Part shown: one piece after another, positions 4,517-35,390 of the stretch
How positions within the stretch are numbered: position 1 is the stretch's first letter
How the letters are laid out: every line of letters begins with the position of its first letter
The notes under the pieces: generated by a model
What the model saw: only the letters and a program-made list of their open reading frames with translations
Database searches by the model: none
Told to the model about the DNA's origin: nothing
From: Jiella endophytica
Lineage (GTDB): Bacteria; Pseudomonadota; Alphaproteobacteria; Rhizobiales; Rhizobiaceae
Assembly: GCF_004519335.1 (NCBI RefSeq)
Contig: NZ_SOZD01000013.1
Coordinates: 1-49,743 of the forward strand
Length of the DNA: 49,743 nucleotides
Direction of reading: 5' to 3'
Made by a program: the position numbers and the translations under genes

Positions 4517-4708
4517 GCCTTCCTCCCTTTATAGACAAATGCGTTGCCTTGATTGTTCATGAAAACAGAAGATCTTGTCTGGTAGTCCTGCCGGGCTTTG
4601 CTTGTGACCGGGGATCGCCCGATCGATCTGCGGCCCGTCTCTTGCTGCTATTTCCCTCCGATTTGCTGTGCCCACCGGCCCCTCCCGGCCGGCGGGTCGT
4701 CTGTGGCC

Positions 4709-5608: not shown

Positions 5609-5665
5609 CGCCTCAGCTCCCCTTCTGCGGGATCGACCCGCCGGACGCGGTTTTCGTGACGCTCG

Positions 5666-6886: not shown

Positions 6887-7121
6887 GACGACTCCCTCCC
6901 AAGAGTGGTGTCAGAACATCACTGGCCTCGAACGTCCTGTTGCCTGCCATCTCCCGGGCCGCTGCGAGTAAGCACCGAAGCGGCCGTTTTGGGATGCATG
7001 ATGCCAGTCGGCGAAGGCGCTGCCTATGGCTACCGTCCTGCCCTCTTACTTTTATCGTCGTGTCGGGCAGACGATGTCGCGGGGCCGATGCGGGCTGGCT
7101 TTCGCCCCGGCCCCGCAGGTC

Positions 7122-8396: not shown

Positions 8397-8455
8397 GATT
8401 TCCTCCGCGTTTTGTCTTGGCGGCGGGCATTGCCTGCCGCGAATGCCTGTCTCTG

Positions 8456-8484
8456 GCGCCGGGCCTCTCCCGAAGGTCCGGCGC
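8456..8484 (-). other. GC-rich hairpin between oxc and frc
   Basis: Arms of 11 bases (8456-8466 and 8474-8484) pair with one mismatch around a 7-base loop, in the 101-bp spacer after the oxc stop. There is no T-run after it on the minus strand, so it is a possible transcript-stability or processing hairpin rather than a clear terminator. Confidence 0.3.
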
Positions 8485-8497
8485 GCCGCGGCCAGCC

Positions 8498-10261: not shown

Positions 10262-10321
10262 CTTGTTCTTCCTCCCGAAAGTCTTGCGGCCGTTTGCCGG
10301 CCTTTGCGATTTGCCTGCGAT

Positions 10322-10342
10322 GGGCGGCCGGACAGGCCGCCC
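10322..10342 (-). other. Hairpin in the oxc leader
   Basis: GGGCGGCC, GGACA, GGCCGCCC: a perfect 8-bp stem about 61 bases before the oxc start. A second small stem (GCGCC/GGCGC, 10355-10369) lies directly upstream in the transcript. If transcription starts near 10620 the oxc leader is about 360 bases and structured. No known riboswitch class was recognised. Confidence 0.35.
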
Positions 10343-10627
10343 CTGGATCCTTCCGCGCCGTTTGGGCGCAACTTCCCCGTTCCGCGGCACTCCCAGGGTG
10401 CTCGGCGGCGCAGGTTTCCAGCTCGCGACCCGCTCCAACCCGCCTTGCGGCGGAGGGACAGACGATCGCGTTCGTTCCGTATCCGCGAAGGTTACGGCGC
10501 CAGAGGCTGAAGTAATGTCTTGCTTTTTACGGCCTGTTGCCGTTGACCAGGCGAGCGATGACCGTTCGGCTGGTGCGGGATGCAGTGTGCAATAGACCTC
10601 CTCGCCATCGCTCCTACGCCGTTATTG

Positions 10628-11379: not shown

Positions 11380-12141
11380 ATGAGAGTCAGCAAAGCCAAA
11401 CGCCAGTCCCAGATCCTTGCCGAACTGAACGTCTCGCCGAGCCTTCGCATCGCCGATCTGGCCGATCGGCTCGCCGTCTCCACCGAAACCATCCGCCGCG
11501 ATCTCGACGAGCTCACCCGCCAGGGCCAGCTCAACCGCACCTATGGCGGCGCCATCCGCGCCCTCGGCACCGAGCCCTCCGTCACCGAGCGGCACACGCT
11601 GCTGGTCGCCGAGCGCGAGCGGATCGCCCGGGCGACGATGGAGATCCTGAGGCCGGCCAATGTCATCATGATCGGCTCGGGATCGACCACCGTCCACGTG
11701 GCGCGGCGACTGGCGGTCGAGCGGACCAACATCACCGTCATCACCCATTCCTTCGGCGTCGCGACGGTGCTGGCGCTCAATCCGACGATCTCGACGCTGA
11801 TCGCCCCCGGCACCTATGACGGCACCGAAGGGGCGACGGTCGGCGTCCACACGGTCGGCTTCCTGAACGAGTTCTTCGCCGACGCCGTGGTGCTCGGTGC
11901 GAGCGGCCTCACCGAGGAAGGGCCGACCGACGCGCTGATCGAGGCCGGCGCCGTCTATGGCGCGATGCTCGCCCGCTCGGCGCGCTCGGTGCTCGTTGCC
12001 GACCATTCGAAATTCGGCCGCGTGTTTCCATCGCGCTGGGCGAGGTGGAAGCAGATCGACGCGCTGGTCAGCGACGCGGCTCCGAACGGTCAGCTGCAGG
12101 CGGCGATCGACCGCCACCATGTCAGCGTCACGGTCGGCTGA
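11380..12141 (+). CDS. DeoR/GlpR-family transcriptional regulator
   Basis: 253 residues. The N-terminal DeoR winged helix (MRVSKAKRQSQILAELNVSPSLR is followed by IADLADRLAVSTETIRRDLDEL, residues about 8-60) carries the diagnostic STETIRRDL recognition helix and the GGAIR stretch. The remainder is the DeoRC sugar-phosphate-sensor fold (ANVIMIGSGSTTVHVARRL near 90-110; DGTEGATVG). Known role: repressors whose effector is often a phosphorylated sugar or metabolite. It converges with the ABC importer at 12163-16289 and is the only regulator in this cluster, so it is the natural candidate for the shared inverted repeats at 16373 and 19884. A phosphorylated effector would suit a pathway that has a kinase. 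Confidence 0.87.
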   Translation: MRVSKAKRQSQILAELNVSPSLRIADLADRLAVSTETIRRDLDELTRQGQLNRTYGGAIRALGTEPSVTERHTLLVAERERIARATMEILRPANVIMIGSGSTTVHVARRLAVERTNITVITHSFGVATVLALNPTISTLIAPGTYDGTEGATVGVHTVGFLNEFFADAVVLGASGLTEEGPTDALIEAGAVYGAMLARSARSVLVADHSKFGRVFPSRWARWKQIDALVSDAAPNGQLQAAIDRHHVSVTVG

Positions 12142-12162
12142 CGCCGGTCCCTTCTGCCGGCC

Positions 12163-12966
12163 TCAGCGCGCCCGCCGCGCCTTGACGAAGCCGGCGATGG
12201 CGCCGCCCGCCAGAAGCAGCGTCGCCGCGGCGAGCGTGCTCATCGTGCCGAGCGCCGGCACCATCGGCGTATAGCCGGCGACCATCTTCGAATAGAGCCA
12301 TTTCGGGATCGTCGAGTCGGCGCCCGCCGTATAGAGCGACAGCGGGAAATTGCCCCAGGAGAGCAGGAAGGCGAAGAGCGCCCCGGACCAGATGCCCGGC
12401 CAGAGGATCGGCAGGGTCACGTCCCTGAGGATCATCCAGCGCCCTGCCCCGAGATCGGCCGCCGCCTCCTCCATCGCCGGGTCGAAGCCGTAGACCTGGA
12501 TGGCGATCACCAGCGTGACGACCGGGACGATCCAGACGAGATGGGCGACGATCGCCGTGTGCCAGCTCGGCTGGATGCCGAGCGTGTTGAACCACAGAAG
12601 CAGCGCCAGGCCGAGCACCGGCTGGGGAAAGAAGATCGGCAGCAGCAGAAGCTTCTGGTAGAGCCGCCGGCCGCGCCAGTCGAACCTGGCGAAGGCGAGC
12701 GCGCCGAAGAAGCCGAGCACCAGCGAGACGACGGTGACGATCAGCGCGATCAGGATCGAGGTCTGGACGATCCGCTGGATCTCCAGCGAATCGAGCGTCT
12801 TCTGCCACCATTCGAAGGAGTAGGCGCGGATCGGGAAAAGGAAGTAGCGGCCCTTCGACAGCCCGGCGAGCGCGCCGCAGGCGACCGGCAGGTAGATCGC
12901 CACGGCGACGAAGATCGTCCAGATCCAGATCATCAGATGCGAGCGGCGGGGGCGGCTTCGATCCAT
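12163..12966 (-). CDS. Polyamine-type ABC importer, permease (PotC-like)
   Basis: 267 residues with six hydrophobic segments and the BPD_transp_1 EAA-type loop EEAAADLGAGRWMILRDVTLP near residue 165 (quoted in part: ADLGAGRWMILRDVTLP). The starting ATG has AGGTGA upstream and lies 4 bases past the stop of the first permease. It is the last gene of the minus-strand operon SBP, ATPase, permease, permease. Family knowledge: PotC/YdcV-type subunits of importers for cationic amines, opines or similar. The substrate is not determined by the permease itself. It is convergent with the DeoR gene, with 21 bp between the stops. Confidence 0.88.
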   Translation of the reverse strand: MDRSRPRRSHLMIWIWTIFVAVAIYLPVACGALAGLSKGRYFLFPIRAYSFEWWQKTLDSLEIQRIVQTSILIALIVTVVSLVLGFFGALAFARFDWRGRRLYQKLLLLPIFFPQPVLGLALLLWFNTLGIQPSWHTAIVAHLVWIVPVVTLVIAIQVYGFDPAMEEAAADLGAGRWMILRDVTLPILWPGIWSGALFAFLLSWGNFPLSLYTAGADSTIPKWLYSKMVAGYTPMVPALGTMSTLAAATLLLAGGAIAGFVKARRAR

Positions 12967-12970
12967 CGCG

Positions 12971-13900
12971 TCACCTGCGGCCGAGAATGCGGTCGAGGTC
13001 GAGCCGCGCCATCACCGCCATCGACAGCCCGCCGATGACGATCATCAGAAGCACGGCGAGCGCCGCGCCGCGCGGCCAGTTCTGCGAATAGGTGAAGGCG
13101 TTCTCGATGTCGTGGCTGATCATGATCACCGACTGGCCGCCGAGGATCTTCGCCTCCGCCACCGCGCCGGCGGCGAGGACGAAGGTCAGAAGCGCGCCGA
13201 TCAGGATGCCGGGCATCGCCAGCGGCAGCTCGATCTCCCGCCAGATCATCAGCCGGCCGGCGCCGAAGTCCCGCGCCGCCTCGATCAGGTCGCCCGGCAC
13301 CATCGACAGCCCCAGCGTCATCGGAAACAGCATGAAGGGCAGATAGGTGTAGATCATCCCGAACAGCGTGATCTCCGGCGTGAACAGCACGTTGGGGCCG
13401 GAGAGCCCGATGCCCGCCAAAAGCCCGTCGAGCACCCCGTGATTGATGAAGAACAGCGTCCAGCCATAGAGCCGGACGTTCTCCGAGATGAACAGCGGGA
13501 AAACGAAGGCGATGCTGACCAGCGACGACCAGCGGCCGAAGACCCGCACCAGGCCGTAGGCGATCGGGTAGCAGATCAGGAGCAGCGCCGCGACGGTCAG
13601 GAGCGCCAGCGCCAGCGACCAGGCGAAGGACATCCACACCGTGTCGGCCGGATTGAAGATCTCGGCGAAGTTCCGCAGCGTGAAACTCTCGAACACCGCG
13701 AAGCTGCGGGGCTCGGCGAAGGCAAAGCCGATCACAGTCAGGAGCGGCGCGAGGAAGCCGAGCGCCATGAACAGGAGGATCGGGCTCGCGCAGCGCGCCC
13801 CCGCCGGGAGCGAAAGGTGGCGGAGCGCGCTCCGGCCCTGCCGCTCTTTGCCCTGTTTCTCCCTGACTGTTGACGAGGTGCCGAGCGTCGCGTCGCTCAT
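12971..13900 (-). CDS. Polyamine-type ABC importer, permease (PotB-like)
   Basis: 309 residues. A hydrophilic N-terminus (MSDATLGTSSTVREKQGKER) is followed by TM segments beginning at about residue 38 (ILLFMALGFLAPLLTVIGF). The coupling loop EAARDFGAGRLMIWREIELP lies near 215-235. It is translationally close to the ATPase (3-base gap after its stop). PotB/YdcU-type permeases form the heterodimeric channel with the PotC-like partner encoded directly downstream. The assignment to the spermidine/putrescine/opine subfamily rests on the SBP and ATPase next door. Confidence 0.88.
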   Translation of the reverse strand: MSDATLGTSSTVREKQGKERQGRSALRHLSLPAGARCASPILLFMALGFLAPLLTVIGFAFAEPRSFAVFESFTLRNFAEIFNPADTVWMSFAWSLALALLTVAALLLICYPIAYGLVRVFGRWSSLVSIAFVFPLFISENVRLYGWTLFFINHGVLDGLLAGIGLSGPNVLFTPEITLFGMIYTYLPFMLFPMTLGLSMVPGDLIEAARDFGAGRLMIWREIELPLAMPGILIGALLTFVLAAGAVAEAKILGGQSVIMISHDIENAFTYSQNWPRGAALAVLLMIVIGGLSMAVMARLDLDRILGRR

Positions 13901-13903
13901 CGC

Positions 13904-15100
13904 TCAGGCCTCCACGACGATGGCGTCTTCGGCGTTCCAGCCGATCAGCACCTCGCCGTCGCCGGTGCCGGGGCGGATCTGCGAGCGCGACATCTCGATC
14001 AGGAACACCCGCTCGCCCGCCCGCACCTGGTACTGGATGCGCGAGCCGAGCGAATATTCGTTGTAGACCCGGCCGCTGACGACATTGTCGGCATCGCCGG
14101 GCGCCGCGAGGAACTTCATGTATTCCGGCCGGATGACGACGGCCGCCCGCTCGGCCCCGGCCATTGTTTGGGGGAGCACGAGGCGGACCGGCTCCGCGGT
14201 CTCCTGCGACAGCCATGCGCCGTTCGAAAGGGTGACGCCGATAACGTTCACCTCGCCGACGAATTCGGCGACGAAGCGGTTCTGCGGCTGGCCGTAGATC
14301 GCGTCGGGGCTGCCGACCTGGACGAGCTTGCCGGCGCGCATGACGCCGATCCGGTCGGACATCACCATCGCCTCCTCCAGCGAGTGGGTGATGTAGACGA
14401 AGGTCTTGCCGGTCTCCTTGTGAAGGTCTTTCAGCTCCTTCTCGAGCAGCTTCTTCAGCTTGTAGTCGAGGGCCGAGAGCGGCTCGTCGAAGAACAGGAC
14501 GTCAGGGTCATAGGCAAAGGCCCTGGCAAGCGCGACGCGCTGGCGCTCGCCGCCGGAGCAGGTCATGACGTTCTTGCCGTAATAGGCCTCCGGCAGCCGC
14601 ACCATGCGCAGGAGCTCCAGCGCCCGCGCCTTGCGCTCGGCGGCGGAGACGCCCTTCGCCTTCAGCGGAAACTCGATGTTGCGCCCGACGGTCATGTGCG
14701 GGAACAGCGCCAGCGACTGAAAGACCAGGCAGGTCGGCCGCCGGCGCGCCGGCAGGTCGTTGATCAGCGTGCCGCGCAGCGTGATGTTGCCCTCCGACGG
14801 CTGCTCCAGCCCGGCAAGCATCCGCAGAAGCGTCGTCTTGCCGGAGCCGGACGGCCCGACGATGGTCAGGAACTCGCCCTCGCGGATGTCGAGCGAGATG
14901 TCGTCGACGGCGGTGAAGTCGTCAAAGCGTTTGGAAACGCCGACCAGCTGCAGCACCGGCAGCGCCGGCCTGTCCGCCCCCTCGCCCGGGCGCCCCCCGC
15001 CCGCGCGGGCCGTCTCGCTCTGCCCGGCGCCCATGCGGGCCGTCTCGCTCTGCTCAGTCCAGGTCATGTTCATCGGCTTGGCGGCTGCCGCTTCTCGCAT
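13904..15100 (-). CDS. Polyamine-type ABC importer, ATP-binding protein (PotA-like)
   Basis: 398 residues. After a long, variable N-terminus, LQLVGVSKRFDDFTAVDDIS opens the ATPase domain. Walker A is GPSGSGKTT, the signature is CSGGERQRVALARA (an unusual Cys precedes SGG), and Walker B is VLFFDEPLSALD. The C-terminal TOBE region includes RPEYMKF. It energises the two downstream permeases. Oddity: residues before the ATPase core contain the repeated string QSETAR, encoded by a direct DNA repeat (19 bases, 30 bases apart at 15005-15053). The start is uncertain: ATGs at 15073 and 15067 are also in frame and none has a clear ribosome site. Confidence 0.88.
   Translation of the reverse strand: MREAAAAKPMNMTWTEQSETARMGAGQSETARAGGGRPGEGADRPALPVLQLVGVSKRFDDFTAVDDISLDIREGEFLTIVGPSGSGKTTLLRMLAGLEQPSEGNITLRGTLINDLPARRRPTCLVFQSLALFPHMTVGRNIEFPLKAKGVSAAERKARALELLRMVRLPEAYYGKNVMTCSGGERQRVALARAFAYDPDVLFFDEPLSALDYKLKKLLEKELKDLHKETGKTFVYITHSLEEAMVMSDRIGVMRAGKLVQVGSPDAIYGQPQNRFVAEFVGEVNVIGVTLSNGAWLSQETAEPVRLVLPQTMAGAERAAVVIRPEYMKFLAAPGDADNVVSGRVYNEYSLGSRIQYQVRAGERVFLIEMSRSQIRPGTGDGEVLIGWNAEDAIVVEA
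15005..15053. repeat. Short tandem duplication in the ATPase N-terminus
   Basis: A 19-base string, GCGGGCCGTCTCGCTCTGC, occurs at 15005-15023 and 15035-15053, period 30. It encodes the duplicated QSETAR segment before the nucleotide-binding domain. The in-frame period (10 codons) keeps the gene open. Confidence 0.75.
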
Positions 15101-15143
15101 CGGGAAAGATCGGGCCGGCGCGCCCCGCGCCGGCCCGGAGCGC

Positions 15144-16289
15144 TCAGCTGCGCTGGCGCTTGGCGTTGTTCATCAGGTCGAGCGCCTTCTCGTAGTCCGG
15201 CACGATGTCGTATTCGACCGAACGGGCCATCTCCTCTTCGAGGCTGTCCCACTGGATGGCGTCGAGCTCGTCCTTGGTGAACAGGTCGAAACAGGCCTTG
15301 TTGCCCATCTGGGCGACCGGGTTGAAGGTGCCCTCGGCAAAGGCCACCGTGTGGGCGACTTCCGGATCCTGGACGTATTTGAGGAATTCCGGGGCCAGCG
15401 GCGAGAGCTCGGGGTTGTTCACCGTCGAGGTCACCTCGATCCAGGAAACGCCGCCCTTGCCGTTCATCGGGCCCTTCAGCGGCGTGATCGCCCGCATCTC
15501 CGGGAAGCCGTCGGCCCGCGCCGGCGAGACCGAATAGGTGCCGCCGGTCATATGCAGGTCGATCTCGCCGGAGATCAGCGCCTGGTTCATCGTCGCGATG
15601 TCGCCGATCAGCTTGGCGCCCTTGAACACCTTCAGGGCGGTGTCCTCGAAGGCCTTCATCTCCTCCGGCGAGTGCTCCTTGAACGGGTCGAGCCCGGCGA
15701 CCAGGAAGATGTTGAAGACGTTCCAGTCGTCTGATTCGAGAATGCCGTATTTGCCGGCGAGGCTCTCGTCGTTGAAGAGGTCCCAGCCGGTCTCCTCGGC
15801 GGTCTTGCGGCTGATCTTGTCGGTGTTGACCACATAGCTGTAGGGGCCGAAGCGCTGGGTCATGCCTAGCAGCTCGCTGCCGTCGTCGCTCATCGCCCAT
15901 TTGTAGGGCGGATGGAACTGCTCCAGCATCTTGTCGAAGTACGGCATGAACTCGTCCTTCGGCAGCGGCTTGATCAGCTTTTCCGGATACATGATCTTGC
16001 GTGCCCAGGGATTGTTCACGTTGATCAGATCCCAGACCTTGCTCTCGCCCGAGCGCAGCCGGTTGATCATCGTCGGATCGTTGGTGAGGCTCTCGGCCTT
16101 CACCGTCGCCCCCTCCTTCTCGCGGAAGGGGTCGAGCACCTGCGCCGAGTTGTAGCCCTCCCAGCACAAGATGTTCAGTTCCTTCTCGCGGGCGGCAAGG
16201 GCCGCGCCCGGAAAGCCGAGCGGCGCGCCCGCGGCAAGGGCGCCGGCGCCGAGGATCTTGAGCGTGTCGCGTCGGTTGAAATTCGTCAT
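15144..16289 (-). CDS. Polyamine-type ABC importer, periplasmic substrate-binding protein
   Basis: 381 residues. The N-terminus MTNFNRRDTLKILGAGALAAG has a twin-arginine-like RRDTLK motif followed by a hydrophobic stretch and an AALAA cleavage region, so export is probably by Tat. The mature part begins KELNILCWEGYNS, the PotD/PotF-type opening (LNxxxWxxY). It is the first gene of the four-gene importer operon, with a 288-bp divergent gap to the SDR gene. The ligand would be a small cationic or polar amine by family, which fits the amino-alcohol kinase and phospho-lyase in the same cluster; this last step is inference. Confidence 0.87.
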   Translation of the reverse strand: MTNFNRRDTLKILGAGALAAGAPLGFPGAALAAREKELNILCWEGYNSAQVLDPFREKEGATVKAESLTNDPTMINRLRSGESKVWDLINVNNPWARKIMYPEKLIKPLPKDEFMPYFDKMLEQFHPPYKWAMSDDGSELLGMTQRFGPYSYVVNTDKISRKTAEETGWDLFNDESLAGKYGILESDDWNVFNIFLVAGLDPFKEHSPEEMKAFEDTALKVFKGAKLIGDIATMNQALISGEIDLHMTGGTYSVSPARADGFPEMRAITPLKGPMNGKGGVSWIEVTSTVNNPELSPLAPEFLKYVQDPEVAHTVAFAEGTFNPVAQMGNKACFDLFTKDELDAIQWDSLEEEMARSVEYDIVPDYEKALDLMNNAKRQRS

Positions 16290-16348
16290 CGGTCCCTCTC
16301 GTCACTCGGCGGGCGTGCGGCCGCCAAAAACTTGGCATGTCCGTCATT

Positions 16349-16390
16349 CGATGTGGCATATCGAACGTCGCGATGTGGACTTCACAACAT
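16349..16390. promoter_or_regulatory. Operator region between the importer and SDR genes
   Basis: The 288-bp divergent gap contains ATGTGGACTTCACAACAT (16373-16390), an imperfect inverted repeat matching the perfect one at 19884-19901 in arm sequence and 6-base spacing. CGATGTGG occurs twice, 22 bases apart (16349 and 16371), about two helix turns. A GGCATGCCAG palindrome core at 16456-16465 resembles the oxc operator. A shared regulator is inferred. Confidence 0.5.
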
Positions 16391-16577
16391 TTTTTTGCGA
16401 TGCGTCAAGAGCTATGATGCCTCGAGCGGCAGCCATGGCCGTTGCCCAAGCATTCGGCATGCCAGTTCGGGCAGAAGCGCGGCATGCGCGCGGTGTTGCG
16501 GGCGTGACGCCTGGCGCAGGCCCGCCGGGCGGCCCGCGACAACCGCGGCGAAAGACACGACAAGAGAGGAGCGCGAC

Positions 16578-17351
16578 ATGTACAGATCGCTGAAGGGAAA
16601 GACCGTCATCGTCACCGGCGCCAGCCGCGGCATCGGCCGGGGCATCGCCAAAAGGTTCGGCGAGGCGGAACTCAACGTCCTCGTCGTCTCGCGCAGCCTC
16701 GCCGATGCCGAGAAGGTCGCCGCCGAGATCGGCGGCCATGCCAGCGCCTTCGAAGCCGATGTCGCCGAGCCGGAGGCTGCCGATGCGATGGCGGCGGCAG
16801 CGCTCGAGCGCTACGGCACGATCGACGTCCTTTGCGCCAATGCCGGCATCTTTCCCTCGGCGAAGCTCGGCGAGATGACGGCGGCCGACTTCGACCAGGT
16901 CATCGGCACCAATCTGAAAGGCACCTTCCTGGCGGTGTCGGCCTGCCTGCCGGCGATGAAGGCGCAGAAGTCCGGCCGCATCATCCTGACCTCGTCGATC
17001 ACCGGACCGGTCACCGGCTTTCCCGGCTGGTCGCATTACGGAGCGAGCAAGGCCGGCCAGCTCGGCTTCATGCGCACCGCGGCGATCGAGCTCGCGCCCT
17101 CCAACATCACCGTGAATGCCGTGCTGCCCGGCAACATCGCCACCGAGGGCCTCGCCGATCTCGGCGCAGACTACACCGCGAAGATGGCGGCCTCGGTGCC
17201 GATGAAGCGCCTCGGCACGGTCGAGGATATCGCCAATGCGGCGCTGTTCTTCGCCACCGAGGAGGCCGCCTATGTCACCGGCCAGAGCCTCATCATCGAC
17301 GGCGGCCAGATCCTGCCGGAATCCCTCGACGCGCTCGAAGCGATGGGCTGA
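16578..17351 (+). CDS. SDR-family NAD(P)-dependent oxidoreductase (FabG-like)
   Basis: 257 residues with GAGAGGAG 7 bases before the ATG. It is a classical short-chain dehydrogenase: cofactor motif TGASRGIG (about residues 13-20), NAG in LCANAGIF (near 90), and the catalytic Ser (TSSITG) with Tyr154 and Lys158 in HYGASKAGQ. The C-terminus has the DGG motif (IIDGGQILP). It reads away from the ABC importer and towards the phospho-lyase gene, within the same putative regulon. FabG-like SDRs oxidise or reduce many alcohols and ketones; here oxidation of a hydroxyl on the imported compound or reduction of its aldehyde product is possible. The substrate cannot be read from the sequence. Confidence 0.87.
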   Translation: MYRSLKGKTVIVTGASRGIGRGIAKRFGEAELNVLVVSRSLADAEKVAAEIGGHASAFEADVAEPEAADAMAAAALERYGTIDVLCANAGIFPSAKLGEMTAADFDQVIGTNLKGTFLAVSACLPAMKAQKSGRIILTSSITGPVTGFPGWSHYGASKAGQLGFMRTAAIELAPSNITVNAVLPGNIATEGLADLGADYTAKMAASVPMKRLGTVEDIANAALFFATEEAAYVTGQSLIIDGGQILPESLDALEAMG

Positions 17352-17414
17352 CTTGCCCCCCGGCGCCGCCTCACCAAGGCGCCGGATGCTCCGCCACGAG
17401 CCGGTCTTCCGACG

Positions 17415-18755
17415 TCAGCCGGCGGGGCGTTCCAGAACGTCGGCCAGCGCCGCGACGAACATCTCCGCATGCTCGCGCGAAAAGCAGAGCGGCGGGCGGA
17501 TCTTCAGCGTATGGCCGAAGGGTCCGGCCGCCCCGACCAGCACATGCCGGCGCCTGAGGCCGTTGATCACCGCGCCGGCGCGCCGGGCGTCAGGCGCGCG
17601 GGTGTCCGGATCGACGATATCGAGCCCGACGAAGAGCCCGGCGCCGCGCACCGCGCCGATCTCCGGACGCCGCCCGGCAAGCTGCCGCAGCCCCGCGCGC
17701 AGATATCCGCCGACGGCCTCGGCATTTTCGATCAGCCCCTCCCCGGCGATCACCTCCAGCACCGCCCGGCCGGCCGCAGCCGCCACGGTGTTGCCGCCGA
17801 AGGTGTTGAAATAGCCGACGCTCTCGCAGAACCGCTCGAGCAGGTCGGCCCGCGTCGCGACGCCGCCCATCGGATAGCCGTTGCCCATCGGCTTGCCCAT
17901 GGTGACGATGTCCGGCGTCACGCCATGGCGGGCAAAGCCCCAGAGCCCCGCCCCGGTGCGCCCGAAGCCCGGCTGCACCTCGTCGGCGATGAAGATGCCG
18001 CCGGCCGCCTGCACGGCCTCGACCGCCGGCTTCAGGAAGCCCGGCGGGTCGGCGAAGACACCGTCGGAGGAGAAGATCGTGTCGACGATCAGGCCTGCAA
18101 GGCCGTGGCCGCTCGCCTGAAGCTCGCCGATCGCCTTGGCCACGGCGCCAGCAAAGCGCGCCGCAAGGTCGCCCGGCCCGTCGCCGTCCCGCTCAGCCGG
18201 CATCGGCACGACCCGGACATGCGGCGGCACCGCGCCGCCCTTCAGCGACGACGGCGAGACCTCGGTGACGAGCGACGTGTTGCCGTGATAGGCGGTCTCG
18301 GTGACGATGAAGCCGCGCGCCCCCGTCGTCGCCATGGCGAGCCGCAGAGCCAGATCGTTGCTCTCCGAGCCGGTGCAGGTCATCACCAGATTGCCGATAG
18401 ATGCCGGCAGCGTCGCCAGCAGCGCCTCGCTGTAACCCTGGACGGTGTCGTTGAGATAGCGCGTGTGGATCGCCATTTCGCCGGCCTGGCGGGCGATCGC
18501 CTCGACGACCCTCGGATGGCAGTGCCCGACCGACGGCACGTTGTTGTAGACGTCGAGATAGCGCTCGCCCGCCCTGTCATACATGAAGACGCCGCTCGCC
18601 CGGACCATCTCGATCGGCTCGCGGTAGAACAGCACCGAGGAGGCCCCCGCCGTCGCCCGGCGCCGCTCGACCATCTCGGCGGTCCGCCCGACGAGCCCCT
18701 CGGCCTCCTTGGCGTCGAAGGCGTTCAGCGCCAGGATCGGCTTGGTCGGGTTCAT
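17415..18755 (-). CDS. Class-III PLP enzyme, amino-alcohol-phosphate phospho-lyase type
   Basis: 446 residues from MNPTKPILALN; GGAGAG lies 9 bases upstream, so I prefer this to the longer in-frame start. Fold-type I, class-III aminotransferase family with PLP Lys288 in VTMGKPMGNGYP, IADEVQPGFGRTG before it, and NTFGGNTV after it. The segments LDVYNNVPSVGHCHPRVVEA, TRYLNDTV and TCTGSESNDLALRLA resemble the AGXT2L branch (ethanolamine-phosphate and 5-phosphohydroxylysine phospho-lyases) more than ordinary omega-transaminases. Known in that branch: beta-elimination of phosphate and ammonia from an amino-alcohol phosphate, giving an aldehyde. The kinase gene directly upstream on the same strand supports this reading. 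A plain transaminase is the alternative. Confidence 0.85.
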   Translation of the reverse strand: MNPTKPILALNAFDAKEAEGLVGRTAEMVERRRATAGASSVLFYREPIEMVRASGVFMYDRAGERYLDVYNNVPSVGHCHPRVVEAIARQAGEMAIHTRYLNDTVQGYSEALLATLPASIGNLVMTCTGSESNDLALRLAMATTGARGFIVTETAYHGNTSLVTEVSPSSLKGGAVPPHVRVVPMPAERDGDGPGDLAARFAGAVAKAIGELQASGHGLAGLIVDTIFSSDGVFADPPGFLKPAVEAVQAAGGIFIADEVQPGFGRTGAGLWGFARHGVTPDIVTMGKPMGNGYPMGGVATRADLLERFCESVGYFNTFGGNTVAAAAGRAVLEVIAGEGLIENAEAVGGYLRAGLRQLAGRRPEIGAVRGAGLFVGLDIVDPDTRAPDARRAGAVINGLRRRHVLVGAAGPFGHTLKIRPPLCFSREHAEMFVAALADVLERPAG

Positions 18756-18810
18756 CGGTCTGTTCTCTCCACGACTATGACAGCCAGGCACCCGGCGCAG
18801 CGGGGAGCCT

Positions 18811-19797
18811 TCAACCTTGCCGGGTCAGGAAGGCTTCGGCGAGTGCGGCCGTGCCGGCGGTGTAGCCATGGCCGAGCTCGGCCGCCGTCGGCGTCTCGGA
18901 ATGCGAGGCGAGCCACGCGGTGAGCAGCATCCGCCGCAGCATGACGAAGACCGGCAGCATCGCCTCGTCCTCCGGCGACAGCGGCGCCACGGCGCGGTAT
19001 CCCGCCACCCAGGCCGCCATCAGTTCCGGCACCACGGGGTCGGTCTCGATGAAGCTGATCGCCGCGGCAAAATCGTACATCAGCCAGGAAAAGCCGCAGT
19101 CGTCGAAATCGATGACGCCGAGCCGCTCGCCTTCGACCAGGAGGTTGGCGAGCCTGAGATCGGCATGGATCAGCCCGAAACGCTCACCTTTGCCATAGGC
19201 GTCGAGGCGCAGCTTCAGCGCCGCGGCGGTCTTCTCCAGAACCGCCTTCTCGGCGGGTTCGAGGCCGATCGCCGCCCGCCAGTCGCCCCAGAGCGGCCGG
19301 CTGCCCAGCATCGCTTCGAAGTCCCACACCTTGCGCGAAAATCCCTCCGGCCGCTGCCAGCTCCGCGAATGGTCGTGCAGCCGCGCGGTGATCGCCCCGA
19401 GCCGCTCGAACCAGGGCACCAGCCCCTCAGCGGCGCTCGGCTCGCGCCCGCTCATGAACTCGAAAGCGACCACCTCGCGCTTTTCGTCGCCATGCTGAAG
19501 CTCGGCGATCAGCCCGCCACCGTCGGCGCGCTCGACCGGCCGCGGCGTCTCGACGACGCCCGCTTCGATCAGCGCCCTCGTCCAGGCGAGTTCGGAGACG
19601 ATCTCGTCGCGGCGGTGATAGCCGGGCCTGTGGACCCTCAGGATGAGGCGCCGGCCGCTGACCGGATCATCAGCAAGGAAGGTGGCGTTTTCCGAGATCG
19701 TCAAAAGCCTCGCCTTAGCCGCGGCGCCCAATCCCCACAGCGGCAAGAGCGGCGCGAGGCCGGCCTGCAGATGGTCGAGAAAGGCGCTGTCATACAT
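18811..19797 (-). CDS. APH-family small-molecule kinase
   Basis: About 328 residues from MYDSAFLDHLQ. Kinase fold of the aminoglycoside-phosphotransferase/homoserine-kinase-II type, with LIHADLRLANLLVEG (Brenner-type HxDxxxxN catalytic loop) and GVIDFDDCG (metal-binding Asp). An ATG at 19860 is also in frame, but a promoter-like TTGCAG-18-TATATC would start RNA at about 19862, leaving no leader for it, so I prefer the internal start; neither has a good ribosome site. It is 55 bp upstream of the phospho-lyase on the same strand. In animals a kinase of this fold phosphorylates 5-hydroxylysine and an AGXT2L lyase then splits the product; a similar kinase and lyase couple on an unknown amino-alcohol is inferred. 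Confidence 0.83.
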   Translation of the reverse strand: MYDSAFLDHLQAGLAPLLPLWGLGAAAKARLLTISENATFLADDPVSGRRLILRVHRPGYHRRDEIVSELAWTRALIEAGVVETPRPVERADGGGLIAELQHGDEKREVVAFEFMSGREPSAAEGLVPWFERLGAITARLHDHSRSWQRPEGFSRKVWDFEAMLGSRPLWGDWRAAIGLEPAEKAVLEKTAAALKLRLDAYGKGERFGLIHADLRLANLLVEGERLGVIDFDDCGFSWLMYDFAAAISFIETDPVVPELMAAWVAGYRAVAPLSPEDEAMLPVFVMLRRMLLTAWLASHSETPTAAELGHGYTAGTAALAEAFLTRQG

Positions 19798-19866
19798 GGG
19801 CAGGACTGTGGCTCGGACGGAGACGCCGGCCGAGGACTCGTCAGCCCCGATGACCGGCATTTCCGT

Positions 19867-19903
19867 TCGATATACAACAAAAAATGTTGGACCTGCAACA
19901 TTT
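19867..19903. promoter_or_regulatory. Perfect inverted repeat and promoter, kinase/hydrolase divergent region
   Basis: AAATGTTG (19882-19889), six bases, CAACATTT (19896-19903): a perfect 8-bp inverted repeat. On the minus strand TTGCAG inside it, an 18-base spacer and TATATC make a fair sigma-70 promoter for the kinase and lyase genes, so the repeat would cover the -35 box. The core is shared with 16373-16390 upstream of the SDR and importer. Confidence 0.55.
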
Positions 19904-19911
19904 CACTTTGC

Positions 19912-19930
19912 ACTGCGGCATCGCCGCAGT
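19912..19930. promoter_or_regulatory. Second inverted repeat beside the kinase operator
   Basis: ACTGCGGC, ATC, GCCGCAGT: perfect 8-bp arms with a 3-base loop, 9 bases from the operator and about 100 bases before the hydrolase start. It may be an operator or a hairpin in the hydrolase leader. Confidence 0.4.
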
Positions 19931-20031
19931 AGCCTCTTGCTGCACAAGGCCCGGGCCGTTCCCTGGACTGGGTCGGCGGCAGAGTGCCGTCGGATCGACG
20001 GACAACGCTTCGGCGGAAGGCAAGTGACGGG

Positions 20032-20922
20032 ATGTGGCGCGAGATCGAACCGGACGAGACCCGGACCGTCAAGGTCGACGGCCATGACGTCGTCACCTAC
20101 AGCTTCGGCAGCGGCGACGACGTGGTCTTCTGCCTGAATGGCGGGCCGGGCCTTCCCTGCGACTATCTGAGGGACTCCCATTCCTGCCTGATCGACCATG
20201 GCTACCGGGTCGTCGCCTTCGACCAGCTCGGCACCGGCGCCTCCGACCGGCCGACCGATCCGGCGCTCTGGACGATCACCCGCTATGTCGAGGAGGTGGA
20301 GACCGTCCGCCGGGCGCTCGGCCTCGGCAAGGTCCATCTCGTCGGCCAGTCATGGGGCGGCTGGCTGGCGATCGAATACGCCCTCACCTATCCGGAAGCC
20401 CTGCGCACGCTGATCCTCGAAAACACCGTCGGCGACATTCCCCATCTCGTCACCGAGCTCGAGCGCCTGCGCGCCGCGCTCGGGCCGGAAACCGTCGCGA
20501 TGATGCAGCGGCACGAAGCCGACGGCAGCCTCGACCATCCGGAATATCAGGCGGCGGTGACGTTATTGAACTACCGGCATGTCTGCCGATTGCCCGAATG
20601 GCCCGCACCGGTGCAGCGTTCGCTGAGCGACTGGAACATGGGTCCCTACGAGACCATGCAGGGGCCGAACGAGTTTTGCTACACCGGCAATCTGAAGGAC
20701 TGGAACCGCATCCCCGACATGCACGAGATCACCGTGCCGGTGCTGATTACCGTCGGCCAGCATGACGAGCTGACGCCGGCCTGCGCCGCCCGGATGAAGC
20801 ACGCCCTGCCCGACGCCGAGGTGGCGGTGTTTCCAAATTCCAGCCACATGCCCTTCTTCGAGGAGCCGCAGGCCTTCTTCCCGGTGCTTCTCGACTTCCT
20901 GAAGCGGCGCAAGCGCGGCTGA
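20032..20922 (+). CDS. Proline-iminopeptidase-family alpha/beta hydrolase
   Basis: 296 residues from ATG 20032, with GGAAGG 12 bases upstream inside a longer in-frame GTG extension. Alpha/beta hydrolase with oxyanion region NGGPGLPCDYL (the HGGPG of prolyl aminopeptidases), GTGASDRP, nucleophile elbow GQSWGGWLAIEYAL, acid Asp in VGQHDELTP and catalytic His in SSHMPFFE. Family S33 members remove N-terminal proline from peptides, but the group also contains amide and ester hydrolases. It lies divergent from the kinase across a shared operator, so it probably belongs to the same pathway; release of the amino-alcohol from a peptide or amide precursor is one inference. Confidence 0.85.
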   Translation: MWREIEPDETRTVKVDGHDVVTYSFGSGDDVVFCLNGGPGLPCDYLRDSHSCLIDHGYRVVAFDQLGTGASDRPTDPALWTITRYVEEVETVRRALGLGKVHLVGQSWGGWLAIEYALTYPEALRTLILENTVGDIPHLVTELERLRAALGPETVAMMQRHEADGSLDHPEYQAAVTLLNYRHVCRLPEWPAPVQRSLSDWNMGPYETMQGPNEFCYTGNLKDWNRIPDMHEITVPVLITVGQHDELTPACAARMKHALPDAEVAVFPNSSHMPFFEEPQAFFPVLLDFLKRRKRG

Positions 20923-21129: not shown

Positions 21130-21205
21130 GGGCGGTTAGCTCAGCTGGTAGAGCGCCTCGTTTACACCGAGGATGTCGGGAGTTCGAGCCTCTCACCGCC
21201 CACCA
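21130..21205 (+). tRNA. tRNA-Val (anticodon UAC)
   Basis: Full cloverleaf: acceptor GGGCGGT pairs with ACCGCCC, D arm GCTC-agctggta-GAGC, anticodon stem CCTCG/CGAGG around TTTACAC (anticodon TAC at 21163-21165), T arm GGGAG-TTCGAGC-CTCTC with one G-U pair, discriminator A and an encoded CCA. It reads GUA valine codons. No integrase or attachment-site duplication is seen beside it. Confidence 0.96.
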
Positions 21206-21303: not shown

Positions 21304-22218
21304 CTACATCCGCCCCTTCCACGGCACCAGGCGCCGCTCGACGAAGCGCATCAGCATGTCGAAGGCATAGGCGATGGCGGCGATCACCACGATCCCCATG
21401 ATCACCGTCGCGGTCTGCAGGAACTGCGAGGCGGTCAGCACCATGTAGCCGAGCCCCTTGGTCGCCGCGACCATCTCGGCGGCGACCAGCGTCGTCCAGC
21501 CGAAGCCGATGCCGATCCGCATGGCCGTCAGGATCTCCGGCAGCGCCGAGGGCAGGATCACGTGCCGCATCACCTGCCAGCGCGAGGCACCGAAGGAATA
21601 GGCGGCATGGATCTGCTCGATCGCCGCCGAGCGCACGCCCGATTTCGCCCCCAGCGCCACCGGGGCAAACACCGACAGGAAGATCAGCAGCACCTTCGAC
21701 GTCTCGCCGATGCCGAACCAGATGATCATCAGCGGCAGATAGGCGAGCGGCGGGATCGGCCGGTAGAACTCGATCGGCGGATCGAAAATGCCGCGGATCG
21801 TCGGGCTCATGCCCATGGCAAGGCCGAGCGGCACGCCGACGGCACAGGCCAGCAGGAAGGCGCCGAAGACGCGGGCCGCCGAGATCCCGGCATGGGCGAG
21901 CAGCGAGGTGCCGGTGAAGCCGTTGGTCAGGACGTCGACGAATTTCAACAGGATCGCCTGGGGCGACGGGACGAAGAGCGGCTTGACCAGACCGAGCGCG
22001 GTGACCAGCCACCAGACGAAGACGAAAGCGACGATGGTGACGAGGCTGAGCACCACCGTTTCGCCCTGGCCGGGCACGCCATAGGTCTCGCCGGGCCTGG
22101 TCGGGCGGCTGCGCAGCAGCCTCTCGAAGCTGCCGGCGACGGCCGCCTGCCATCCCGTCGCAGACGCCGGCGAGGCCTCGGCCGGGGCGGCGTCCTCCTT
22201 GGTTCGCACGATGCTCAT
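21304..22218 (-). CDS. tauC: Taurine-type ABC importer, permease
   Basis: 304 residues of the SsuC/TauC permease family. A hydrophilic N-terminus is followed by TM segments (ETVVLSLVTIVAFVFVWWLV and others) and the coupling loop AAYSFGASRWQVMRHVILPSALP near 200-222 (quoted in part: SFGASRWQVMRHVILPSA). The start codon overlaps the tauB stop (ATGA), so translation is coupled. With TauA and TauB upstream it forms the importer of taurine or another alkanesulfonate. The aminotransferase, exporter and SDR next to it favour taurine. Confidence 0.88.
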   Translation of the reverse strand: MSIVRTKEDAAPAEASPASATGWQAAVAGSFERLLRSRPTRPGETYGVPGQGETVVLSLVTIVAFVFVWWLVTALGLVKPLFVPSPQAILLKFVDVLTNGFTGTSLLAHAGISAARVFGAFLLACAVGVPLGLAMGMSPTIRGIFDPPIEFYRPIPPLAYLPLMIIWFGIGETSKVLLIFLSVFAPVALGAKSGVRSAAIEQIHAAYSFGASRWQVMRHVILPSALPEILTAMRIGIGFGWTTLVAAEMVAATKGLGYMVLTASQFLQTATVIMGIVVIAAIAYAFDMLMRFVERRLVPWKGRM

Positions 22219-23003
22219 CAGGCGGCCTCCTCGTCGGCGAAGATGATGGCGAGAACGTCTTCGCGCAGCGCGATGAAATCCTGCGACGCCTTGATGGCGC
22301 GGGCGGACTGGCCGTCGCAGAACCGCTTCGAAAACGGCAGGTCGAAGACATGGGCGATGCGGCCGGGGCGAGGCGACATGACGATCAGTTTCGTCCCCAT
22401 GAACAGCGCCTCCTCGACGCTGTGGGTGATGAAGAAGACCGACTTCTGCGTCTCGTGCCAGATGTTGAGGATCAGCTCCTGCGCCTTCTCCCGGGTCAGC
22501 GCGTCGAGCGCGCCGAGCGGCTCGTCCATCAGCAGGAGCTTCGGATCGGATGTCAGCGCACGGGCGATGCCGACCCGCTGCTGCATGCCGCCGGACAGCG
22601 AATAGACCGGCGAGGTCTCGAAGCCGGAAAGACCGAGGAGGCCGATGAATTTCTCGGCGACCTCCTGCCGGGCGGCCCGCGGGCGGCCCTGCAGCTTGAG
22701 GCCGAAGGCGACGTTCTCGACGACGTTCAGCCAGGGCAGCAGCGCATGTTTCTGGAAGACGACGGAGCGGTCGGCGCTCGGCCCGGCGACCGGCTTGCCG
22801 TTGAGGAGGATGTCCCCCGAGGAGGGAGCCAGAAAGCCGGCGATGAGATTGAGCAGCGTCGACTTTCCGCAGCCCGAGGCACCGAGGGCCACGGCGAATT
22901 CGCCGGGGCGAATGGTCAGATCGACCCGGCTGAGCGCCTCCACCGGAGCCCGCCCGTCGGCCGCCGGATAGACGACCGACGCGTCTCTGATCTCGAGTCC
23001 CAT
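22218..23003 (-). CDS. tauB: Taurine-type ABC importer, ATP-binding protein
   Basis: 261 residues; ATG 23003 is preferred over the GTG one codon upstream because GGAGAG is 6 bases before it. Walker A GASGCGKST, Q loop FQKHALLPWLNV, signature LSGGMQQRVGIARAL, Walker B LLLMDEPLGALD, H loop THSVEEALFMG. These are typical of TauB/SsuB ATPases, including the VVFQKHALLPW segment. It overlaps tauC by 4 bases and follows tauA by 64 bp, so the three form one unit. Confidence 0.9.
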   Translation of the reverse strand: MGLEIRDASVVYPAADGRAPVEALSRVDLTIRPGEFAVALGASGCGKSTLLNLIAGFLAPSSGDILLNGKPVAGPSADRSVVFQKHALLPWLNVVENVAFGLKLQGRPRAARQEVAEKFIGLLGLSGFETSPVYSLSGGMQQRVGIARALTSDPKLLLMDEPLGALDALTREKAQELILNIWHETQKSVFFITHSVEEALFMGTKLIVMSPRPGRIAHVFDLPFSKRFCDGQSARAIKASQDFIALREDVLAIIFADEEAA

Positions 23004-23067
23004 CACTGTCTCTCCAGCTTCTCCGCCGCAGGCGGCGCGGCGGAGGGTTTCGCGAATGCCGGGGGGC

Positions 23068-24069
23068 TTATTCGGACGCCGCGGCCTTGGCGTATTCCTC
23101 CGTCACCGAAGCGGAATAGTCGTCGGCAGCGCCGTCGATCCGGCCGGCCGACTGCAGGAATTCGGCGGTCGACTTGACGGCCGCGGCGCCCTTTTCCCCG
23201 AGCCAGCCGCTGTCGATCTGCTCCTTCAGCGGCAGGAAGGTGTAGCCGGCCAGGACCGCCGGCACCTGATCGGGCGCCGCGCCGGTCCGCTCCGCGATCG
23301 TCTTCACCGGCTCGCTGTCGGCAGTCCATTTCGACGGATCGGCGAGATAGTCGCCGTTTGCCTCGGCCATGGTCTTGGTGAAGGCGATCATCGCCTCCTT
23401 GTGGGATTCGGCGAAGTCCTTGTTGACCACCCAGGCGTCGAAGGTCGGGTAGCCCCATTCGGCGGTCTTGTCCGCACCGACGAGCCGGGTCCCGTCCTCC
23501 ATCAGCTTGCCCTGGGCAGGCTCCCAGACGAAACCGGCGTCGATGGCGCCCTGCTGCCAGGCGGCGACGAGCTGATCGGGCGACATGTTCATGATCGTCA
23601 CGTCGCTCGGATCGACGCCGGCATGCTTCAGCGCCCCCATCAGCGAGAAATGCGAGGTCGAACCGATCGGCACGCCGATCCGCTTTCCTTTCAGATCGGC
23701 CAGCGTCTCGATCCCCGAACCGTTGCGCACGATCAGCGATTCGGCGGTGCCGATGACCTCGGCAACCATGAACATCTGAAGGTCGAGACCCTGCGTCGCG
23801 GCAATCGCCATCGGGGAGGAGCCGAGCTCGGCCACATTGACGTCGCCGGACGCCATCGCGGCGATGACGTCGGTGCCGGCGGCGAACTTGCGCCAGTCGA
23901 TCTTCCAGCCGGTGGCCTTTTCGAACTTTGCGTCGGCCGCCGCCACCTGGTCCGGCGTCGGATTGCCGAAATGGCCGACGATGACGGTCTCCTGCGCGGC
24001 GGCTGCTCCGACGGCCAGTCCGGACGCAGTCAGGCCGACCAGGAAAACGGCTGCAAGCTTATTGATCAT
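23068..24069 (-). CDS. tauA: Taurine ABC importer, substrate-binding protein
   Basis: 333 residues from MINKLAAVFLVG, with GGAGAG 6 bases upstream. The Sec signal peptide runs to about residue 26 (GAAAAQ). The mature start TVIVGHFGNPTPDQVAAAD is very close to known TauA proteins, and the body is an OpuAC/SsuA-like type II periplasmic fold (GKRIGVPIGSTSHFSL, DAGFVWEPAQGKL). It binds taurine and hands it to TauBC by family. It sits 265 bp downstream of the aminotransferase on the same strand, and that gap shows no gene. Confidence 0.9.
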   Translation of the reverse strand: MINKLAAVFLVGLTASGLAVGAAAAQETVIVGHFGNPTPDQVAAADAKFEKATGWKIDWRKFAAGTDVIAAMASGDVNVAELGSSPMAIAATQGLDLQMFMVAEVIGTAESLIVRNGSGIETLADLKGKRIGVPIGSTSHFSLMGALKHAGVDPSDVTIMNMSPDQLVAAWQQGAIDAGFVWEPAQGKLMEDGTRLVGADKTAEWGYPTFDAWVVNKDFAESHKEAMIAFTKTMAEANGDYLADPSKWTADSEPVKTIAERTGAAPDQVPAVLAGYTFLPLKEQIDSGWLGEKGAAAVKSTAEFLQSAGRIDGAADDYSASVTEEYAKAAASE

Positions 24070-24334
24070 TCTGCTCTCCAACTCTCATGGCAATAAAGGC
24101 GCAGCCCCCGGGCGATGGGGTAGCGCGCGTCGAAACCCGCATTGGAACGACAAGCAAGGACCATGCCGTGACGGGCGCCGGCCCGTTTCGGGCTGCATCG
24201 GGATGCCGGAAAGCGGCCCCGCACCGGCCGGCAGCGGCATGCGGCGCAGCGCTGGTCGGCGTCTCGATGCCGCCTGCCCGGTCCCGGAATCCAGAATCGC
24301 CAGCGGGCAGGCAGGAGGGGCCATTCTCGGACGG

Positions 24335-25657
<1,323 letters not shown>

Positions 25658-25829
25658 CGCGTGTCCTCCATCTAAAGATCGCCAAGCTCACTCCAGCCGC
25701 GGCGAAACGGAAAGAGCCACGGCAAAGTCTCGATGGAGCCAGGCCTGGCCCCACCGAAGCCGGCTTCTGGACCTTTTCAACGCGTCCCTTAGACGAAATG
25801 GTGCCCGGGACCTTCCCGGAGCTGCCGTC

Positions 25830-31730: not shown

Positions 31731-31862
31731 GAAGAACCACGGCTGGCCCTACGCCCCGGCTGGCGGGGCGGGAACTATAAGGCCCGCAACGGCCTCGGGC
31801 CTGCGGCAGCCGCACTTGCTGCAATCGGCCATTCGAAGCCACGACCATTGGGGATTTCAGCC

Positions 31863-35388: not shown

Positions 35389-35390
35389 CG

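What the first reader, a model, noticed from the sequence alone, without database searches (positions are those of the whole stretch)
16289..20922. Kinase plus phospho-lyase cluster with its own importer: possible undescribed amino-alcohol pathway
Seen: an APH-fold kinase directly upstream of a class-III PLP enzyme of the AGXT2L type, with a polyamine-type ABC importer, an SDR and an iminopeptidase-like hydrolase. Known: in animals such kinase and lyase pairs degrade 5-hydroxylysine and ethanolamine phosphate. Inference: import, phosphorylation, then elimination of phosphate and ammonia to an aldehyde. No aldehyde dehydrogenase is present, so the SDR may take part. I am not aware of this set being described.
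Basis: partly seen in the sequence, partly recalled or inferred. Interest (0 to 1): 0.8.

Follow-up and report, generated by a model that had tools for sequence, protein, structure and literature searches.

The report
Shell-free aminopropanol breakdown gene cluster
A bacterium carries a compact gene set that probably imports a small amino-alcohol, adds a phosphate and splits it to an aldehyde plus ammonia; the chemistry is known from bacterial microcompartments, but here it appears without the protein shell and with its own importer.

Summary
The PLP enzyme falls in the phospho-lyase clade: a tree groups it with A1RDF1 (5g4i) and human ETNPPL (100/99), apart from GabT, PatA, ArgD and AptA, and three GabT residues are replaced. 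The kinase and SDR have 6ef6 and 6ci8/6ci9 as best solved relatives (47% and 57% identical), which I recall as the Mycobacterium smegmatis (S)-1-amino-2-propanol kinase and dehydrogenase of the RMM/aminoacetone-utilisation microcompartment. The genome shows no BMC shell protein. The same eight genes occur in 11 of 45 other kinase neighbourhoods examined, including Jiella, Ancylobacter and Agrobacterium fabrum C58. Kinase and lyase co-occur in alphaproteobacteria (20 of 23 kinase genomes, p=7e-19). Best reading: aminoacetone <-> (S)-1-amino-2-propanol -> phosphate ester -> propionaldehyde + NH3 + Pi, without a shell. Substrate and final aldehyde step are inferred. New variant of a known kind. 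A second locus type swaps in a distant PLP enzyme plus an acylating aldehyde dehydrogenase.

The parts
11380..12141 (+). DeoR/GlpR-family regulator, probable regulator of the set
   Evidence: PF00455 7.2e-39; counterpart in the 11 other full-set loci
12163..12966 (-). PotC-like ABC permease
   Evidence: NF007047 4.9e-34, below its curated cut-off; conserved with the kinase/lyase/SDR genes
12971..13900 (-). PotB-like ABC permease
   Evidence: NF007044 1.8e-36, below its curated cut-off
13904..15100 (-). PotA-like ABC ATPase
   Evidence: NF006987 1.1e-94, below its curated cut-off
15144..16289 (-). PotD/PotF-like periplasmic binding protein; ligand unknown
   Evidence: SBP_bac_8 7.4e-11; only solved relative a putrescine-binding protein, 28.8 bits; 92% identical in Jiella flava
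16578..17351 (+). SDR, close to 6ci8 (recalled aminopropanol dehydrogenase; aminoacetone <-> 1-amino-2-propanol)
   Evidence: 6ci8/6ci9 308 bits, 3pk0/3rih 292/282, next 173; 57.3% identical to 6ci8 with shared CANAGIFPS, TSSITGP, PGNIxTEGL and C-terminal LPES; ATG at 16578
17415..18755 (-). class-III PLP phospho-lyase (Lys288 in GKPMGNG)
   Evidence: 5g4i 369 bits, 6tor 323 bits, next 167; clade 100/99; GabT R141/E211/R398 replaced; fold search top hits 5g4i and 6tor
18811..19860 (-). APH-fold amino-alcohol kinase (likely start 19797)
   Evidence: 6ef6 271 bits, next 60; seven signature residues shared with 6ef6, present in 29 of 31 APK-like rows in all
19984..20922 (+). proline-iminopeptidase-family hydrolase, possible accessory amidase (alternative start 20032)
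   Evidence: TIGR01250 280 bits; 77-78% identical copy next to a kinase paralogue in L040 and L044, 85% next to the DeoR gene in L142, 82% in L051

Best explanation
A catabolic gene set for a small vicinal amino-alcohol, most likely 1-amino-2-propanol (isopropanolamine) and its ketone aminoacetone. The PotABCD-like transporter imports the amine or a conjugate of it. The SDR interconverts aminoacetone and (S)-1-amino-2-propanol. The APH-fold kinase uses ATP to make the O-phosphate. The class-III PLP enzyme removes phosphate and ammonia by 1,2-elimination, giving propionaldehyde (acetaldehyde if ethanolamine is used). An aldehyde dehydrogenase elsewhere in the genome then oxidises it. Shown here: family membership, phospho-lyase-clade placement, shared kinase and SDR signature residues, conserved linkage, no BMC shell match. 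Inferred: substrate identity, stereochemistry, transporter ligand, last step.
For: PLP enzyme: best matches are the phospho-lyases 5g4i and 6tor, 369 and 323 bits versus 167 for the next; one clade of 21 rows with them, support 100/99, with E. coli GabT, PatA, ArgD and the window's AptA outside; GKPM(G/A)NG in exactly those 21 of 30 rows, 19 locus rows and 2 PDB rows; GabT R141/E211/R398 changed in all 21. Kinase: 6ef6 271 bits; S56, W194, R236, E272, W284, R310, H320 identical in 29 of 31 APK-like rows including 6ef6 and the Rhodococcus microcompartment kinase (L037 and L045 differ at two and one), against none of 4 rows of a second kinase group, which differ at six or seven; whether these line the pocket was not checked. 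SDR: 6ci8/6ci9 308 bits, 57.3% identity. Linkage: same eight genes in 11 of 45 other kinase neighbourhoods; co-occurrence p=6.6e-19 and 4.7e-9. Aldehyde product: related loci add an aldehyde dehydrogenase, acylating type in L036, L038, L039, L043 and L149, L151, L152, and an Aldedh-family (GabD-like) one directly after the lyase in L150. Amino-alcohol substrate: EutB and EutC, ethanolamine ammonia-lyase, lie between SDR and kinase in L050; an annotated ethanolamine permease lies between lyase and kinase in Chimaeribacter.
Against: I know of no activity measured on any enzyme of this shell-free set. That 6ef6 and 6ci8/6ci9 are the M. smegmatis aminopropanol enzymes is recalled; the tool calls them aminoglycoside phosphotransferase and 3-oxoacyl-ACP reductase, the kinase paper is not held and a search for the entry codes found nothing relevant. 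No aldehyde dehydrogenase in the window and no acylating one in the genome by one search without its own positive control. No threonine dehydrogenase over cut-off, so no obvious internal aminoacetone source. Nine of the 20 loci show no PLP enzyme beside the kinase, three of them on contigs under 9 kb, and Aurantimonas VKM B-3413 (L048) has the kinase beside gyrB with none of the set. The Rhodococcus jostii RMM stretch showed no SDR match. The importer genes reach no curated cut-off, and the binding-protein model was too poor to use.
Confidence: 0.7

Rival explanations
1. Same kinase and phospho-lyase chemistry, but the main substrate is ethanolamine (product acetaldehyde) or a broad range of amino-alcohols, with the SDR only accessory.
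For: Human ETNPPL is in the same clade; annotated ethanolamine permease beside kinase and lyase in Chimaeribacter; EutB and EutC in the L050 locus.
Against: The SDR, with no obvious role in ethanolamine use, is kept in the 11 full-set loci (part of that definition) and co-occurs with the kinase beyond them (9 of 12 SDR genomes); it is 57% identical to 6ci8; the kinase signature is that of 6ef6.
Confidence: 0.15
2. The nutrient is an amide or peptide conjugate of the amino-alcohol; the iminopeptidase (or, in other loci, an isochorismatase-family or P1-family hydrolase) frees it before SDR, kinase and lyase act. This adds to, and does not exclude, the best explanation.
For: A hydrolase recurs in the neighbourhood: isochorismatase-like in L029, L036, L039, L043, L053, L143, L147, L150, L151; P1 peptidase in L051, L053, L143; iminopeptidase in the window, L040, L044, L051, L142. 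In L040 the kinase and iminopeptidase lie between a carbon-nitrogen hydrolase and an oligopeptide-type ABC importer. Six of the 11 other full-set loci have at least one of the three types.
Against: The hydrolase type varies; in the class sample the iminopeptidase lies by the kinase in only 2 of the 11 other genomes that have it; five of the 11 full-set loci (L049, L050, L052, L057, L144) showed none of the three in the stretch examined.
Confidence: 0.2
3. The PLP enzyme is an ordinary class-III aminotransferase and the kinase acts on something else.
For: Relatives are annotated as aspartate aminotransferase family in public records; Ravcheev et al. 2019 proposed an aminotransferase for the microcompartment homologue (section read).
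Against: Tree, GKPMGNG motif and loss of three GabT residues; linkage to the kinase. Loss of those residues alone is not proof: the window's AptA lacks them too.
Confidence: 0.05
4. The kinase supplies 1-amino-2-propanol O-phosphate for cobalamin side-chain salvage, not for breakdown.
For: Aminopropanol phosphate was proposed as a cobalamin intermediate (a reference title seen).
Against: The adjacent lyase would destroy it; no cobinamide gene was noticed in the set; the cobalamin isomer is R (title) whereas the recalled kinase specificity is S.
Confidence: 0.03

Closest known systems
RMM / Aut / aminoacetone-utilisation (AAUM) microcompartment loci of Mycobacterium and Rhodococcus
   Same: SDR, APH-type kinase and class-III PLP enzyme of the same families; the Rhodococcus jostii PLP enzyme is in the same 15-row subclade (95/90); proposed to turn aminoacetone into propionyl-CoA (PMC8156839, passage)
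   Different: No shell gene found in this genome, PotABCD-like importer instead of an amino-acid/GabP-type permease, DeoR instead of GntR regulator, no aldehyde dehydrogenase in the cluster
Arthrobacter aurescens A1RDF1 phospholyase (PDB 5g4i)
   Same: Best sequence and fold match; same clade
   Different: Falls in the other subclade, together with two kinase-lyase pairs that lie beside aromatic-catabolism genes
Human ETNPPL (ethanolamine-phosphate phospho-lyase, PDB 6tor) and PHYKPL
   Same: ETNPPL in the same clade; shared N71, N72, R99, Y108, W272, K288-P289-M290, F316-N317 (20 rows)
   Different: Animal kinase partners were not compared; PHYKPL was not compared at all
Amino-alcohol kinase and O-phosphate phospho-lyase route of Erwinia and Pseudomonas (1970s biochemistry, recalled)
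   Same: Same two steps with no shell that I recall; the Chimaeribacter and Acinetobacter kinase + lyase loci fit it
   Different: Those two loci have an AraC regulator (and in Chimaeribacter an ethanolamine permease), no SDR match and no PotABCD match

Membership tests
Class-III PLP phospho-lyases (ETNPPL/A1RDF1 family) | Groups with characterised phospho-lyases and apart from transaminases | tested here: met
   100/99 support, 21 of 30 rows; only four transaminase-family reference rows
Class-III PLP phospho-lyases (ETNPPL/A1RDF1 family) | Catalytic lysine and family motif GKPMGNG | tested here: met
   K288 in GKPMGNGYP
Class-III PLP phospho-lyases (ETNPPL/A1RDF1 family) | Releases phosphate and ammonia, no transamination | not testable with these tools
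   needs assay
(S)-1-amino-2-propanol kinase (6ef6, identity recalled) | Closest solved relative and same conserved signature residues | tested here: met
   271 bits vs 60; seven signature residues
1-amino-2-propanol dehydrogenase (6ci8/6ci9, identity recalled) | Closest solved relative, shared active-region segments and C-terminal LPES | tested here: met
   57.3% identity
RMM/Aut/AAUM microcompartment | BMC shell proteins | tested here: not met
   PF00936 0 matches in the genome (97% complete); control genomes E. coli and Synechococcus rang
RMM/Aut/AAUM microcompartment | CoA-acylating aldehyde dehydrogenase in the locus | tested here: not met
   none in the window; none found in the genome by one search
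RMM/Aut/AAUM microcompartment | Kinase + class-III PLP enzyme + SDR core | tested here: met
Polyamine (PotABCD) importer | Binding protein binds polyamines; curated model scores | tested here: inconclusive
   no polyamine model over cut-off; weak structural relative, 28.8 bits; model pLDDT 42.6, discarded

The most novel reading that the evidence does not exclude
A widespread shell-free amino-alcohol route exists in proteobacteria in which the same kinase and SDR are served by two distant PLP phospho-lyase lineages: the ETNPPL-type one of this window, and a putrescine-aminotransferase-like one paired with an acylating aldehyde dehydrogenase that lost its transaminase residues independently. 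The true nutrient is a conjugated (amide-linked) amino-alcohol opened by swappable hydrolases.
Probability: 0.2. Interest if true: 0.6.

Novelty: new variant of a known kind. Interest (0 to 1): 0.42.

Why it matters
It suggests that aminoacetone/1-amino-2-propanol breakdown does not need a microcompartment, and gives a testable function to genes now labelled FabG, aspartate aminotransferase family and phosphotransferase in several proteobacteria, including the Agrobacterium fabrum C58 At plasmid. Comparing shelled and shell-free versions would ask directly what the shell is for. It also argues that the microcompartment aminotransferase of this family is really a phospho-lyase.
Full report
What is there. 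The finding's four genes are real, and the functional unit is larger: 11380-20922. On the minus strand lie PotC-, PotB- and PotA-like genes and a PotD-like binding protein (12163-16289), then the PLP enzyme (17415-18755) preceded by the kinase (18811-19860) with a 55-base gap. On the plus strand lie a DeoR/GlpR regulator (11380-12141), the SDR (16578-17351), divergent from the binding-protein gene with 288 bases between, and the iminopeptidase-like hydrolase (19984-20922). Family assignments are; the polyamine-importer models are the best but none reaches its curated cut-off. A tRNA-Val at 21130-21205 follows, then a separate taurine-type importer (TIGR01729 over cut-off) and omega-aminotransferase AptA.

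The PLP enzyme. Its best solved relatives are 5g4i (named by the fold library as PLP-dependent phospholyase A1RDF1) at 369 bits and 6tor (human O-phosphoethanolamine phospho-lyase) at 323 bits; the next is 167. In a 30-row tree, 21 rows including these two form one side of a branch with support 100/99. E. coli GabT, PatA, ArgD, the window's AptA, a Tsukamurella enzyme and four second-type PLP enzymes (L036, L038, L039, L043) fall outside. Several outside rows have long branches, so their own order is unsure, and the ETNPPL row has an odd letter make-up. Two subclades appear: 15 rows (95/90) with this window, the Rhodococcus jostii microcompartment enzyme and the two gammaproteobacterial plasmid ones; and 5 rows (99/99) with A1RDF1. 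The motif GKPM(G/A)NG is in exactly those 21 rows, 19 locus rows and 2 PDB rows. Three residues of E. coli GabT that I recall as central to its two-substrate transamination, R141, E211 and R398, read N/T/C/H, S/T/N/C and K in all 21 rows. This is consistent with a lyase but not proof, since AptA also lacks them. A model (pLDDT 71.1) matches 5g4i and 6tor best in the PDB.

The kinase. 6ef6 scores 271 bits against 60 for the next, amicoumacin kinase; identity is 47.2%. Seven positions (S56, W194, R236, E272, W284, R310, H320) were picked because they are constant in 24 rows I had chosen as APK-like and changed in four others, save S56 in L047. Over all 36 rows, 29 of 31 APK-like rows, 6ef6 included, have all seven; L037 differs at two and L045 at one; the four rows of the second group differ at six (L047) or seven; the last row is amicoumacin kinase. 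Where these residues sit in the structure was not checked. The second group (89/57 in the tree, weak) includes the pair beside hpa homoprotocatechuate genes (L060) and the one beside protocatechuate/vanillate genes (L059); the surroundings of L046 and L047 were not annotated. The kinase tree places this window's kinase in a 12-row group (99/99); its relation to the Rhodococcus kinase is unresolved.

The SDR. 6ci8/6ci9 score 308 bits and two further chains (3pk0, 3rih) 292 and 282; the next, a FabG, 173. Identity with 6ci8 is 57.3% against 44.2% with that FabG, and four segments including the C-terminal LPES are shared.

What these PDB entries are. I recall 6ef6 as the (S)-1-amino-2-propanol kinase and 6ci8/6ci9 as the (S)-1-amino-2-propanol dehydrogenase of the M. 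smegmatis RMM microcompartment (Mallette and Kimber 2018). I saw those papers only as references and one-line statements in others; the kinase paper is not held and the dehydrogenase paper was not looked up. The tool's own molecule names do not say this. [quoted passage not shown] PMC6620236 (passages and one section) names them Aut and proposes transamination; PMC8156839 (passage) says the route was proposed to turn aminoacetone into propionyl-CoA. The Rhodococcus jostii RHA1 stretch fetched here holds shell genes, aldehyde dehydrogenase, kinase (41.6%) and PLP enzyme (46.0%), but no SDR match.

Conservation. I examined 46 kinase neighbourhoods in three batches (20, 13, 13); L052 and L141 are the same Jiella locus, so 45 distinct. 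They are not a random sample: of the 26 rows outside the window's genome, 20 were widened; of 94 plasmid records 8 were opened; of 15 further matches in relatives 13 were widened. The same eight genes (kinase, lyase, SDR, binding protein, PotA, PotB, PotC, DeoR) occur in 11 of the 45: L029, L049 Ancylobacter, L050 Thioalkalivibrio MAG, L051 Rhizobiaceae MAG, L052 Jiella flava, L053 Agrobacterium fabrum C58 plasmid At, L057 A. tumefaciens plasmid, L142, L143, L144, L147. Within the window's own genus the kinase is patchy: 4 of 10 genomes including the window's. In a class-wide sample of 289 genomes the kinase (E 1e-20) is in 24, a lyase homologue (E 1e-60) in 35, the SDR (E 1e-70) in 13. Leaving out the window's genome, kinase and lyase share 20 of 23 kinase genomes (p=6.6e-19), kinase and SDR share 9 of 12 SDR genomes (p=4.7e-9). 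The limits were my choice and related genomes are counted as independent, so the p-values are optimistic. The lyase lies beside the kinase in 14 of 24 genomes, the window's included; some other homologues are in long frames elsewhere in the genome.

Against: 9 of the 20 loci (L030, L033, L034, L035, L037, L040, L041, L044, L045) show no PLP enzyme at the kinase; L033, L034 and L041 are on short contigs. L048 (Aurantimonas) has the kinase beside gyrB and a TPR protein with none of the set; L153 also has the kinase without lyase or SDR.

A second version of the locus. L036, L038, L039, L043 and L149, L151, L152 carry the same SDR and kinase, at least part of the Pot importer, an AraC regulator, an acylating aldehyde dehydrogenase 45-48% identical to the Rhodococcus microcompartment one, and a second type of PLP enzyme. 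Those of the first four are about 26% identical to this window's; those of the last three are 60-69% identical to the L036 one. The L036 enzyme is nearest to putrescine aminotransferase in the PDB and to several class-III transaminase models in NCBIfam, none over cut-off among the 25 shown. In the four aligned ones the three GabT positions read H, T and Q; L149, L151 and L152 also have HGH. L150 has an ETNPPL-type lyase directly followed by an Aldedh-family gene. These loci support an aldehyde as the product of the kinase-PLP pair.

Mechanism. Import; SDR between aminoacetone and (S)-1-amino-2-propanol; ATP-dependent phosphorylation; PLP 1,2-elimination to an enamine that hydrolyses to propionaldehyde and ammonia; oxidation by an unlinked dehydrogenase. 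No shell match, no acylating aldehyde dehydrogenase found (without its own positive control genome), no Tdh over cut-off, so the substrate is probably taken up rather than made from threonine. The recurring hydrolases (6 of the 11 other full-set loci, and the window) hint that a conjugate may be the real nutrient; this is speculation.

Novelty. I found no paper in the held library on a shell-free locus with a PotABCD-like importer in the searches, judged from listings and from passages of those opened; subscription papers are mostly missing, so this is weak evidence of absence.

Noticed in passing
L060:7616-9921, L059:7622-9906, L046:6992-9367, L047:8079-10471: A second kinase + phospho-lyase group; two of the four loci lie beside homoprotocatechuate (hpa) or protocatechuate/vanillate genes, and the kinase signature residues differ. 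Possibly for phenolic amino-alcohols such as octopamine (guess).
   Followed up: partly
L036:10541-11836, L149:10519-11808, L151:11020-12291, L152:3951-5237: Putrescine-aminotransferase-like PLP enzyme in place of the phospho-lyase in loci with the same kinase, with an acylating aldehyde dehydrogenase; transaminase residue lost (HGH). Possible second phospho-lyase lineage.
   Followed up: partly
L058:9926-12140: Tsukamurella plasmid kinase followed by a third type of class-III PLP enzyme outside the phospho-lyase clade.
   Followed up: no
L040:8540-16801 (similar in L044): Kinase paralogue between a carbon-nitrogen hydrolase and an iminopeptidase about 77% identical to the window's, followed by an oligopeptide-type ABC importer.
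   Followed up: partly
L050:7223-9906: Ethanolamine ammonia-lyase EutB and EutC inside a full-set locus of a Thioalkalivibrio MAG.
   Followed up: partly
31848-41441: Oligopeptide-type ABC importer genes, a flavin monooxygenase-like gene and a DUF1989 + GCV_T fusion, resembling a trimethylamine monooxygenase / TMAO demethylase pair (recalled resemblance).
   Followed up: no
21304-26609: Taurine-type ABC importer (binding protein TIGR01729 over cut-off), AptA-type omega-aminotransferase (NF052567 over cut-off) and a TauE-family gene side by side.
   Followed up: partly
729-10438: CoA-ligase domains, an MFS gene, a succinyl-CoA-ligase-like pair, a class III CoA-transferase and a TPP enzyme in a row: looks like oxalate/oxalyl-CoA metabolism (inference).
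   Followed up: no
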